From NCBI GenBank assembly GCA_018711685.1, contig DVHZ01000137.1, forward strand, positions 41,912-105,911: DNA of 64,000 nt, written 5' to 3'. The translations under genes were made by a program, and so were the position numbers. Of this stretch, positions 8,269-50,362 are shown in pieces. The stretch is from Candidatus Excrementavichristensenella intestinipullorum. GTDB taxonomy: Bacteria > Bacillota > Clostridia > Christensenellales > Aristaeellaceae. Under the pieces are notes generated by a model. That model did no database searches. It saw only the letters and a list, made by a program, of their open reading frames with translations, and had not been told where the DNA came from. How positions within the stretch are numbered: position 1 is the stretch's first letter; each line of letters opens with the position of its first letter.

Positions 8269-8472
8269 ATGGATATCCAGCTGGGGGACTTGGTCCAAAT
8301 GAAAAAACCCCATCCCTGCGGCAGCCTGAATTGGACGGTGACGCGGGTGGGCGCGGATATCAAGATCAAATGCCAGGGCTGCGGCCGCGTGGTCATGCTG
8401 GACCGGGCGGTGTTTGAGAAACGACTGAAAAAAATCCTGCGCCGCCAGGCGGGAGAGGAAGGGCCTTCATGA
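8269..8472 (+). CDS. DUF951 family protein
   Basis: MDIQLGDLVQMKKPHPCGSLNWTVTRVGADIKIKCQGCGRVVMLDR. Confidence 0.85.
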   Translation: MDIQLGDLVQMKKPHPCGSLNWTVTRVGADIKIKCQGCGRVVMLDRAVFEKRLKKILRRQAGEEGPS

Positions 8473-9314
8473 GCTACCGCTACGATGAGGACTACGAAGA
8501 TGTACCCGCCAGGCGGGTGAAGAAGCCCGCGGGAGAGGGCGCCCAGCGCGGCGGCGAGAAGCGAGCCGCCCGCAAGGCGTCCCCTTCCTCCGGCGCTTCA
8601 TCCCGGAAGGGGGACGCCAAGGCCGCCGCAGGCAAGGCCAGGCCTTCGTCCAAGGCCGCCAAGCCGGCCCCGGAGGGAGGGGCGAAAAAGCGTCCGGCGC
8701 CATCGGGCGCCGCCCGTAAGCCTCGCCACCGCTATCCGGAGGAGGATTACGCGCCCCGGCCCAAGCGCCCTTCAGGGCGCAAGAAGGGCCGCAAAAGGCG
8801 GACCAATCCCATTACGGCGCTGCTGTATTGGGTACTGGCTTTGGCTTTGGCCTTCGGCATCAGCTATTTCGTTCGGGAGTACTGCTTTGAGATCGTCCGG
8901 GTATCGGGAGACAACATGTACGAGACCCTGATGGACGGCGATTTGGCCCTGGTGACCAAGTTCGATTACCAAAGCGAGACGCCCCAGCGGGGCGACGTGG
9001 TGGCGGTGGAGCTGGGCGGCAATCAGGGCTATGTGCTCAGGCGTGTGGTGGGCCTGCCGGGAGAGACCGTGGAGATCGTGGGGGGCGAAACCCTGATCAA
9101 CGGCTCCAAGCTGCTGGAATCCTACATCGGCCTGGCCACCTACGACACCTTTGACGGAAAAACGCTGCCCTCGGGCAAGTATTACCTGCTGGGGGACAAC
9201 CGCACCGAGACCAACGACAGCCGCTCCAGCCAGATTGGCCTGGTGGATCAGGAGGACATCGTGGGCAAGGTGCGCTGGGTGATTTGGCCCTTGAGTCACT
9301 TGGGCAGTTTGTAA
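8469..9314 (+). CDS. Signal peptidase I-like protein with long basic N-terminal extension; predicted catalytically inactive
   Basis: S26 fold motifs (GDNRTETNDSRSSQ) present, but SGDNM in place of SGxSM and VLRRVVGLPG in place of xxKRxxGxPG. Confidence 0.85.
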   Translation: MSYRYDEDYEDVPARRVKKPAGEGAQRGGEKRAARKASPSSGASSRKGDAKAAAGKARPSSKAAKPAPEGGAKKRPAPSGAARKPRHRYPEEDYAPRPKRPSGRKKGRKRRTNPITALLYWVLALALAFGISYFVREYCFEIVRVSGDNMYETLMDGDLALVTKFDYQSETPQRGDVVAVELGGNQGYVLRRVVGLPGETVEIVGGETLINGSKLLESYIGLATYDTFDGKTLPSGKYYLLGDNRTETNDSRSSQIGLVDQEDIVGKVRWVIWPLSHLGSL

Positions 9315-9336
9315 TCGCAGAAAGGTCGGAAAATTC

Positions 9337-9912
9337 ATGAGCGAAGTGGAGCGCATCGCGCCGGAAACCGCCCCAGGCGGGGAGAAAAAGAAAAAGACCG
9401 TGAAGCAGGAAATCTTTGAGTGGATCAAGGCAATCGTCATAGCCCTGGTCGTGGTGTTCATCATCCGCAAATTCTTCTTTACCATGATTCGGGTGGACGG
9501 AAAATCCATGCTGGAGACACTCCAGGACGGCGACCGGGTAGCGGCCACCATCATCGACATGAAGCTGTACGGGCCTCAGCGGGGCAACATCGTCATTTGC
9601 ACCTATCCGGGACAGGATTACCTGTGTATCAAGCGGGTCATCGGAATGCCCGGGGATACGTTGCAGATCATCCGGGGCGTCACCTACATCAACGGCGAGG
9701 TATACGAGGAGCCCTATGTGACCCATCCTAAGACCAACGAGTATTATGGGCCGATCACGCTGGGCGAGGACGAGTACTTCGTCATGGGCGATAACCGGGC
9801 CGTGTCCCACGATAGCCGCTCCAGCGACGTAGGTCCCTTGAGCGCTTCGGCCATCGAGGGCAACGCCAGGTTGCGTCTTTGGCCGCTGAACGCCATTGGA
9901 ACGCTGGACTAG
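9337..9912 (+). CDS. lepB: Signal peptidase I
   Basis: VDGKSMLETLQDGD, CIKRVIGMPGD, VMGDNRAVSHDSRSSD. Confidence 0.94.
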   Translation: MSEVERIAPETAPGGEKKKKTVKQEIFEWIKAIVIALVVVFIIRKFFFTMIRVDGKSMLETLQDGDRVAATIIDMKLYGPQRGNIVICTYPGQDYLCIKRVIGMPGDTLQIIRGVTYINGEVYEEPYVTHPKTNEYYGPITLGEDEYFVMGDNRAVSHDSRSSDVGPLSASAIEGNARLRLWPLNAIGTLD

Positions 9913-9952
9913 CCCAGTGCGCTTCCCGGCCCTGTGAAAGGGGTTTCAGCCC

Positions 9953-10441
9953 ATGGGATGGGAGAGGGCGAAGCGATGGGAAAGCTTGGTTATGGCTGGA
10001 GTCCTGCTTCTGACGGTCTTTGTGGTGCGCTCCACCCTGTTTACCGTAATCCGGGTGGAGGGGCAGTCCATGCGGGAGACGTACCAAGGCGGCGAGCTGC
10101 TGCTGGTTACCGTGCCCGATTTGTGGTTGCAAGGCCCGCGGCAGGGCGACGTGGTCATATTGCGCTATCCAGGTCAACAGGGCTTATTCGTCAAGCGGGT
10201 GGCTGCCTTGGGCGGACAGCAGGTAGCTTTGCGTCAGGGACGGCTGTACGTGGACGGTTACCCGGTCCAGGAAGAGCCGGGGGTGGTGCGGGATCAGCGC
10301 GCTTTTGGCCCCGTGACGGTGCCGCAGGACAGCGTATTCGTATTGGGCGATAACCGGCCGGATTCCATGGACAGCCGCATGGTGGGGCCGGTTCAGAAGG
10401 ACATGCTGGTGGGCAGGGTGCTGGTCCAATTGACCGGTTGA
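9953..10441 (+). CDS. Signal peptidase I (third tandem copy)
   Basis: VEGQSMRETYQGGE, LFVKRVAALGG, VLGDNRPDSMDSRMVG. Confidence 0.9.
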   Translation: MGWERAKRWESLVMAGVLLLTVFVVRSTLFTVIRVEGQSMRETYQGGELLLVTVPDLWLQGPRQGDVVILRYPGQQGLFVKRVAALGGQQVALRQGRLYVDGYPVQEEPGVVRDQRAFGPVTVPQDSVFVLGDNRPDSMDSRMVGPVQKDMLVGRVLVQLTG

Positions 10442-12196: not shown

Positions 12197-12553
12197 ATGG
12201 CTGGAATCAAGGCTTTGATGGAAAAATTGGAAGCCGACGCGGCTTTTGCAGGGGAAATTATCAAAGCGGGAAGTGTCGAAGAACGGATGGATAAGATTCG
12301 ACAGGCGGGATTTGAAATTACCTCCGAAGAACTCGCCAAAGCCCAGAAGAGTGCTGATGGCGATGAGAACTCAGCCTTGAGGGAAGATGAACTGAAAGCG
12401 GTTACTGGAGGAACCAATAGTGATGAGTACGTGGAAATGATAGAAGAGATGAATAGAGTTATCGATGAGTTCAAAAATAATTTTCCGGGGCTTGATGTCA
12501 GCAACCCTGTTATACGGAGAATGTTAACAGATAATCTTAATCATATTTTCTAA
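12197..12553 (+). CDS. Nif11-class RiPP precursor-like peptide (leader ending TGG)
   Basis: IKALMEKLEADAAFAGEIIKAGSVEERMDKIRQAGFEITSEELAKA....LREDELKAVTGG, then a ~46-aa Cys-free core. Confidence 0.75.
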   Translation: MAGIKALMEKLEADAAFAGEIIKAGSVEERMDKIRQAGFEITSEELAKAQKSADGDENSALREDELKAVTGGTNSDEYVEMIEEMNRVIDEFKNNFPGLDVSNPVIRRMLTDNLNHIF

Positions 12554-12954: not shown

Positions 12955-13013
12955 GAAGTGCCGCCGCCCTTCGGCGGCGGCACTTCACCGCCCGGGGGGC
13001 TTCGCCCCCCGGG
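12955..13013. repeat. Hairpin pair belonging to the palindromic repeat family (partial/solo module)
   Basis: gaagtgccgccgc-ccttcg-gcggcggcacttc (12955-12986) then cccggggggc-ttc-gccccccggg (12991-13013). Confidence 0.8.
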
Positions 13014-13128
13014 ACCCCCCACAACGCCCATGCCCCAGCTTTTTCCAGTTTGTCCTTGCCTTTGCTGCGGGGTCCTCTCCAGCCTTCGCTCGTCATCCCG
13101 GCACGAACTCATAGCCCCAGCGTTCCCG

Positions 13129-13726
13129 CGGCAGGGCCGCCGCCAGATGGCGACGGCCCTGCCGCGCCCGGGGGGCGCTGCCCCCCGGGACCCCCTGACG
13201 CGGGCGTTGGGGCTGTTGGTGGTCTGGTGGAGCGTGGGTACTGCGGTGTGGGAAGTCGGTGGGATTGTGGTGAGTGCGGGGCTTTTTGGGGGATGGGTCA
13301 TCGAGGATGGGGTGTTCTGGCGGTCCCCAATGCCGCCCTTTACGGCGGCATTGGGGGGCTCAGCGTATTTGGGACGTGGGCTCCGCCACATTGCTGCGGC
13401 TCGTGGCTCCGCCCGAAGTTACTGCCGCCCATAGGCTCCTCGCTGGGGCGGATGCGGGTTTGGCTCCTGTTGCTGTGCCCGTTCGCTTTCTGGAGCCTAT
13501 GGGCGGGGAATCAGGTGACGGGGGCTACGGAGGACCGGGGTTGCCGGGGGTGTGGGGATGCGGTGGGGCGCAAAAGTTCGGTGGGCTAGGTGGCTGACTC
13601 GGCGCCGGGGGCGCTGCCCCCGGGCCCCCGCCAGGGACTCCTCGCCCCTGGACCCCCGCCAAGGGGGGATGGCCCCCCTTGGAACCGCCTATCTCGCTGG
13701 CGCGTAGGTGGGGCAACGGCCTTGAG
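13129..13726 (+). repeat. ~600-bp non-coding palindrome-rich repetitive element, copy A
   Basis: Reverse complement of 49761-50362 over most of its length with variable internal segments; multiple hairpins. Confidence 0.88.
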
Positions 13727-49713: not shown

Positions 49714-49760
49714 CCTTTGCGCAACAGCTTTGGGCGGAGCGACGGCTCCTTCCGCCCCCG

Positions 49761-50362
49761 CTCAAGGCCGTTGCCCCACCTACGCGCCAGCGAGGATGGC
49801 GGTTCCAAGGGGGGCCATCCCCCCTTGGCGGGGGTCCAGGGGCGAGGAGGCCCTGGCGGGGGCCCGGGGGCAGCGCCCCCGGCGCTGAGTCAACAGCCGC
49901 CCCATCGAATTCCCGAATTGCACCGCATCCTCGCTACCTCCGCTCTCCGGCATCCCGCTCCCCCGTACCCCCCGTCACCTGATTCCCCGCCCATAGGCTC
50001 CCCAAAATGGACGGACACAACAGCAGGACACAGAACGGGACAGCGGGAGCGAGGAGCCTATGGGCGGCAGTAACTCGGGGCGGAGCCACGAGCCGCAGCA
50101 ATGTGGCGGAGCCCACCTCCCGAATACGCTGAGCTCCCCCAATGCCGCCGCAAAGGGCGGCATTGGGGGACCGCCAGAACACCGCCTCCCCGATGACCCA
50201 CCGCCCCAAAAAGCAGGGATTGAACGATACGCCCCGCCTCCCACCACGGCGAAACCGGCGCTGCACCGGAGCACTCAAAGCTGCGCCTATCGCGTCAGGG
50301 GGTCCCGGGGGGCGGAGCCCCCCGGGCGCGAAGGAGGCCCGGCTTTGCCGGGCCTCCTTCGC
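49761..50362 (-). repeat. ~600-bp non-coding palindrome-rich repetitive element, copy B (inverted relative to copy A)
   Basis: Reverse complement aligns with 13129-13726 over most of its length. Confidence 0.88.

What the first reader, a model, noticed from the sequence alone, without database searches (positions are those of the whole stretch)
13129..13726. Uncharacterised ~600-bp palindrome-rich repetitive element, copy A
Seen directly: the reverse complement of 49761-50362 realigns to this block in long near-identical runs (e.g. ATGCCGCCCTTTRCGGCGGCATTGGGG; CTCAGCGTATTYGGGASGTGGGCTCCGCCACATTGCTGCGGCTCGTGGCTCCGCCC; TTACTGCCGCCCATAGGCTCCTCGCT; GGAGCCTATGGGCGGGGAATCAGGTGACGGGG; CTCGCTGGCGCGTAGGTGGGGCAACGGCCTTGAG). 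It encodes no recognisable protein, sits between genes, and is a chain of hairpins. Two copies in 64 kb suggests a family-wide repeat. Inference: a non-autonomous mobile element or a structured RNA/DNA family.
Basis: partly seen in the sequence, partly recalled or inferred. Interest (0 to 1): 0.8.

Follow-up and report, generated by a model that had tools for sequence, protein, structure and literature searches.

The report
Mosaic hairpin repeat between converging genes
The two copies belong to a previously undescribed family of large, hairpin-filled, non-coding DNA repeats (at least 24 core copies) that one uncultured gut or rumen Clostridia species carries mainly where two genes run head-on into each other; they resemble the BIME repeats of E. 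coli and probably serve, or are tolerated, as gene-end structures.

Summary
Copies A and B are 82% identical over 578 aligned positions (E 5e-154). They belong to a genome-wide family: about 24 cores and about 70 hits reaching the 3' end of the model, in a 2.68 Mb draft genome. The element is not protein-coding. It is a mosaic of separable modules: a 5' hairpin pair, a spacer, a ~390-bp core and a 3' module of ~200 bp repeated one to three times. Copies carry recombined blocks. The 5' hairpin has 16-19 bp stems with two-sided substitutions and almost no G-U intermediates. Nearby gene ends facing the element are 3' ends in 39 of 48 cases (background 48%), and 8 of 10 fully bracketed copies lie between convergent genes (background 16%). 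No Rfam family reaches threshold. The core pattern is absent from other GTDB species, viral contigs and the one congener held. I found no target duplication and no linked transposase. Another genus of the family has a different-core analogue starting at stop codons. Best reading: a new BIME-like extragenic mosaic repeat, non-autonomous, whose hairpins and C-rich linkers probably act as a two-way gene-end module. That function is inferred; a purely selfish element is the main rival.

The parts
12955..13013 (+). copy A, extra 5' hairpin pair (GCCGCCGCC-type stem, then CCCGGGGGGC-N3-GCCCCCCGGG)
   Evidence: read; repeats 13133-13195 at 79%
13014..13123 (+). copy A, 5' spacer module (M5), also found without the core elsewhere in the genome
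   Evidence: nhmmer E 1.4e-27 here; 16 hits, 7 without core or 3' module nearby
13127..13166 (+). copy A, 5' variable hairpin; the stem covaries across 20 copies
13167..13201 (+). copy A, invariant hairpin CCCGGGGGGC-N3-GCCCCCCGGG followed by ACCCCCTGACGC; start of the core model
13202..13324 (+). copy A, G/T-rich linker with two alternative haplotype blocks among copies
13325..13356 (+). copy A, core hairpin CCCCAATGCCGCC...GGCGGCATTGGGG with compensatory changes
13378..13414 (+). copy A, core hairpin GGGC-TCC-GCCAC...GTGGC-TCC-GCCC
13425..13506 (+). copy A, long stem CCGCCCATAGGCTCC / GGAGCCTATGGGCGG closing a variable loop
13510..13560 (+). copy A, G-run linker; quadruplex-like here and in some but not all copies
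13595..13726 (+). copy A, 3' module (M3): three hairpins joined by ACCCCCG spacers, then the GCTGGCGCGTAGGTGGGGCAACGGCCTTGAG tail; tandem in other copies
50328..50362 (-). copy B, 5' variable hairpin with a different stem sequence
49758..50330 (-). copy B, core plus 3' module, between tgt (+, ends 49713) and a glyoxalase-family gene (-, ends 50395)

Best explanation
A new family of BIME-like extragenic mosaic repeats. SHOWN: the element is dispersed, non-coding and built from separable modules of hairpins; copies exchange blocks; and it is concentrated at the 3' ends of genes, above all between convergent genes. INFERRED: it spreads as non-autonomous DNA (single-stranded hairpin intermediates, or recombination and template switching between copies) with no dedicated enzyme now visible. 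It is kept where it does no damage, and there it works as a two-way gene-end module: transcripts entering from either gene meet stable hairpins separated by unpaired, C-rich, G-poor stretches, which would stall polymerase, favour Rho-assisted termination and protect the mRNA 3' end.
For: Copy number and dispersal. Modules found alone and in tandem. Four-gamete pairs rise from 55% (under 100 bp apart) to about 80-90% at greater distances. Gene ends within 400 bp facing the element are 3' ends in 39/48 against 48% background (p 2e-6); 8/10 bracketed copies are convergent against 66/410 gaps. Only 4/39 of these gene ends have a canonical hairpin-plus-T-run terminator before the element, versus 69/342 other 3' ends. 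Genes entering from the M3 side have C>G sense skew 0.17 versus about 0 elsewhere (p 2e-7). The genome encodes Rho. A different-core analogue in another genus starts at stop codons, with C>G sense skew at 20 of 20 ends and 7 convergent, 8 codirectional, 0 divergent sites. Published precedents: REPs lie mostly downstream of genes (PMC3733652), are frequent between convergent genes (PMC1525189), and are reported to bind gyrase and aid Rho-dependent termination (PMC2817692).
Against: No transcript data. On the upstream-gene side there is no C-skew in the first 150 nt. Some copies lie upstream of genes (9 of 48 near gene ends), so the element is not strictly a gene-end device. The congener G001 has short gaps (52-148 bp) after several of the same genes without any element, so the genes do not need it. 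Genes are my own codon-usage calls on a draft assembly (206 contigs), and clusters at contig ends are not fully independent.
Confidence: 0.5

Rival explanations
1. Purely selfish or neutral non-autonomous repeat (MITE- or REPIN-like). Its 3'-end position is only what purifying selection leaves, because insertions in genes and promoters are lost.
For: Species-restricted, mosaic, varying module number; absent after the same genes in the congener; tolerated upstream of some genes.
Against: No target duplication or defined ends, no associated transposase; a different genus shows the same stop-codon placement with unrelated core sequence, suggesting more than chance tolerance.
Confidence: 0.33
2. 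DNA topology or chromosome-organisation site (gyrase or nucleoid protein binding), placed where convergent transcription piles up positive supercoils, as for BIME-2 in E. coli.
For: Convergent placement; BIME-2 binding of gyrase is reported (PMC2817692).
Against: No binding data; no gyrase or IHF-type motif was identified here.
Confidence: 0.1
3. A structured non-coding RNA family with its own promoter and function.
For: Strong stem covariation in the 5' hairpin (9 pairs with two-sided change, 0/500 shuffles) and weaker in the core; conserved linker sequence.
Against: Almost no G-U intermediates in the covarying stem; M3 hairpins show no covariation signal; modules occur in isolation; no Rfam match at threshold, only weak sub-threshold ones.
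Confidence: 0.06
4. Assembly artefact or simple segmental duplication.
For: Many copies sit at contig ends of a draft genome.
Against: Several copies lie inside long contigs with unrelated flanks, e.g. three on the 106-kb contig C126; full-length copies are 68-90% identical to each other, too diverged for assembly duplication.
Confidence: 0.01

Closest known systems
BIME (bacterial interspersed mosaic element) of enterobacteria
   Same: Extragenic, repeated, mosaic of palindromic units and linker motifs, variable number of units, enriched at gene 3' ends and between convergent genes.
   Different: Units are not ~35-bp REPs in alternating orientation; a ~390-bp core and ~200-bp modules lie in fixed order and orientation; no GTAG or CGTC tag; no RAYT found.
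REP / REPIN (GTAG- or CGTC-tagged palindromes, RAYT-mobilised)
   Same: Hairpin units dispersed between genes, mainly downstream of coding regions.
   Different: Stem length and composition differ, no conserved tag, and the only Y1 transposase of the genome is an IS200-type gene with different end sequences nearby.
MITE
   Same: Short, non-coding, dispersed, structured.
   Different: No terminal inverted repeats bounding a fixed length and no target-site duplication detected.
Analogue in genome G025 (another genus of the same family)
   Same: Large hairpin arrays with ACCCC-type spacers at gene 3' ends.
   Different: Core sequence unrelated; similarity is confined to the hairpin-ACCCCC-hairpin part of M3.

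Membership tests
BIME (in the broad sense) | repeated extragenic mosaic of palindromic units and other motifs | tested here: met
BIME (in the broad sense) | palindromic units are REPs in alternating orientation | tested here: not met
   modules lie in one fixed order and orientation in all copies
BIME (in the broad sense) | binds gyrase, IHF or DNA polymerase I | not testable with these tools
   needs binding or cleavage assays
REP / REPIN | 20-40 bp palindrome with a GTAG or CGTC tag at one end | tested here: not met
   GTAG occurs in the M3 tail of some copies but is replaced by GGTG, GGGG or GGAA in others and is not at a hairpin end; no other conserved tag seen
REP / REPIN | a RAYT transposase gene flanked by the repeats | tested here: not met
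   single Y1_Tnp in the ~90% complete assembly, IS200-type, not flanked by the element
MITE | terminal inverted repeats plus target-site duplication | tested here: not met
   direct repeats around 9 copies do not exceed shuffles; 3' end varies with module number
Rfam family | match at or above the gathering score | tested here: not met
   none in the window; sub-threshold only, e.g. GA-cis 24.0 versus 34.7 bits
Intrinsic terminator | GC-rich hairpin followed by a T run | tested here: inconclusive
   4 of 39 neighbouring gene ends have one before the element; no T-run after the conserved hairpins in copies A and B; termination not measured

The most novel reading that the evidence does not exclude
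In this group of uncultured Clostridia, different species have independently amplified large hairpin mosaics that occupy gaps between stop codons and act as the main gene-end signal (hairpins alternating with C-rich Rho-binding linkers) in place of ordinary T-run terminators, with stems kept perfect by template switching in DNA rather than by selection on each base pair.
Probability: 0.15. Interest if true: 0.75.

Novelty: new variant of a known kind. Interest (0 to 1): 0.45.

Why it matters
It extends the BIME/REP kind of repeat to a large mosaic in uncultured gut or rumen Clostridia with no visible transposase. It gives a ready comparative system for an old question: whether extragenic palindromes at convergent gene ends are parasites or gene-end devices. 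It also explains some breaks in metagenome assemblies of such genomes, because contigs end inside the element. The covarying stem with almost no G-U intermediates is a caution against reading base-pair covariation alone as proof of a functional RNA.

Tried and rejected
Rfam membership: no match at threshold. Coding sequence: rejected on single-base indels among copies. RAYT-driven REP: a Y1 transposase search found only an unlinked IS200-type gene. Phage or plasmid origin: no match. Presence in other species: the core pattern had no hit in GTDB genomes, and DNA search of 60 relatives gave only short hairpin-level matches. A hairpin-spacer pattern searched over 150 family genomes occurs in few of them, so a family-wide shared sequence is rejected. 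G-quadruplex as a defining part: motif in only 7 of 12 copies after the AATCAG landmark and frequent in shuffles, so not claimed. Target duplication: none above shuffles.

Full report
OBSERVATION. BLAST of copy A against the window's own genome (2.68 Mb, 206 contigs, about 90% complete) gave 77 matches. A profile built from the best copies found 87 hits in 58 clusters in the 0.97 Mb of contigs I held. By my count of that table, 24 hits start at the 5' end of the model (cores) and about 70 reach its 3' end. Many hits run to a contig end. In an arbitrary set of 40 contigs, 7 of 74 ends lay in the element, and many other contig ends were other GC-rich hairpins.

ANATOMY. Reading 5' to 3': a variable hairpin of 16-19 bp (13127-13166 in copy A), the invariant hairpin CCCGGGGGGC-N3-GCCCCCCGGG followed by ACCCCC, a G/T-rich linker, three conserved core hairpins (13325-13356, 13378-13414, 13425-13506), a G-run linker, and a 3' module M3 of three hairpins joined by ACCCCCG spacers plus a conserved tail. 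In some copies a second hairpin pair and spacer (M5) precedes this; in others M3 is repeated two or three times. M5 occurs without core or M3 nearby at 7 of 16 places, and M3 occurs without the core. It is therefore a mosaic of modules, not one fixed unit. Eleven full-length copies are 68-90% identical to each other, and pairs of biallelic sites showing all four combinations rise from 55% within 100 bp to about 80-90% beyond, which is the mark of recombination between copies.

STEMS. In the 5' hairpin 9 of 17 pairs show changes on both sides, no shuffle reaches this, and sliding the partner destroys it. One pair is GC in 10 copies, CG in 6, UA in 3 and AU in 1, with no mismatch and no G-U. The core hairpins show the same more weakly; M3 is too conserved to tell. 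Two-sided change with almost no intermediates is what DNA template switching produces (Monttinen and Loytynoja, PMC8794818). So the covariation shows that the palindromes are kept perfect; it does not by itself prove an RNA function.

PLACE. I called genes by codon usage on the held contigs. Gene ends within 400 bp facing the element are 3' ends in 39 of 48 cases, against 48% for gaps in general, p 2e-6. Of ten copies bracketed on both sides, eight lie between convergent genes, against 66 of 410 gaps. Both window copies do: copy A lies between a small Nif11-domain ORF and feoB, copy B between tgt and a glyoxalase-family gene. Neighbouring gene ends seldom have a T-run terminator before the element (4/39, versus 69/342 for other 3' ends). 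On the M3 side the first 150 nt after the stop codon are C-rich and G-poor in the sense strand (median skew 0.17 versus about 0; p 2e-7). Rho is encoded. Exceptions exist: 9 of 48 near gene ends are 5' ends.

DISTRIBUTION. The core pattern has no match in the GTDB genome collection or viral contigs (records of this or very near genomes may be left out), and BLAST finds none in phages or plasmids. Of 60 relatives, two besides the own genome gave only short hairpin-level matches. The same-genus genome G001 has no match, and several of its orthologous 3' ends have short gaps without the element. Relatives named through tgt are uncultured gut and rumen Clostridia, including Candidatus Fimadaptatus. 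Genome G025, another genus of the same family, carries its own hairpin mosaics (0.4-1.2 kb) with an unrelated core: 15 with both flanking genes called, 7 convergent, 8 codirectional, 0 divergent, many beginning within a few bases of the stop codon, with C>G sense skew at all 20 gene ends examined. The sense-strand orientation there is partly a consequence of inverted ends, so it is not independent proof of a transcript function.

MECHANISM. Shown: dispersal, modularity, recombination between copies, perfect stems, gene-end placement. Inferred: non-autonomous spread (no target duplication, no linked transposase) and a two-way gene-end role through hairpins and C-rich linkers. REPs and BIMEs supply precedents for placement, Rho-aided termination and gyrase binding (PMC3733652, PMC1525189, PMC2817692). 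A purely selfish element held in harmless places is the strongest rival. I put about 0.7 on the class 'BIME-like extragenic mosaic repeat' and about 0.35 on the gene-end function; the stated confidence of 0.5 is for the two together in loose form.

LIMITS. Draft assembly, home-made gene calls, no transcripts, no strain series, no ISfinder. The 58 clusters are not all independent, because broken copies can appear on two contigs.

Noticed in passing
genome G025, loci L156-L164 (e.g. L159:4290-5500, L162:8797-9492): A second, different-core family of 0.4-1.2 kb hairpin arrays running nearly from stop codon to stop codon; in places the stop codon lies in a hairpin loop (CAGGGGG-TAA-CCCCCTG).
   Followed up: partly
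window 12197-12553 (+): Small ORF with a Nif11 domain (Pfam E 6e-6), like leader peptides of ribosomally made peptides, just 5' of copy A.
   Followed up: partly
window 8469-10441 (+): Three consecutive ORFs that read like type I signal peptidases (by eye, not tested).
   Followed up: no
loci L202 and L205 (genomes G015, G084): The GGGGGC-N3-GCCCCC-N-GACCCCC hairpin stands directly after the stop codon of what reads like an IS3-type transposase in two genera.
   Followed up: no
genome G000 contigs C4, C24, C12, C18, C26, C32, C44 (ends): Many other perfect GC-rich hairpins and short tandem arrays (e.g. GGGGGGCAAGGCCCCCCGGACCCCCTGCAGC) at contig ends, unrelated to the core.
   Followed up: no
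genomes G001 (locus L212) and G000: An operon contiguous in the congener is scattered in G000, with elements next to several of the broken ends; repeat-mediated rearrangement is possible but confounded by contig breaks.
   Followed up: partly
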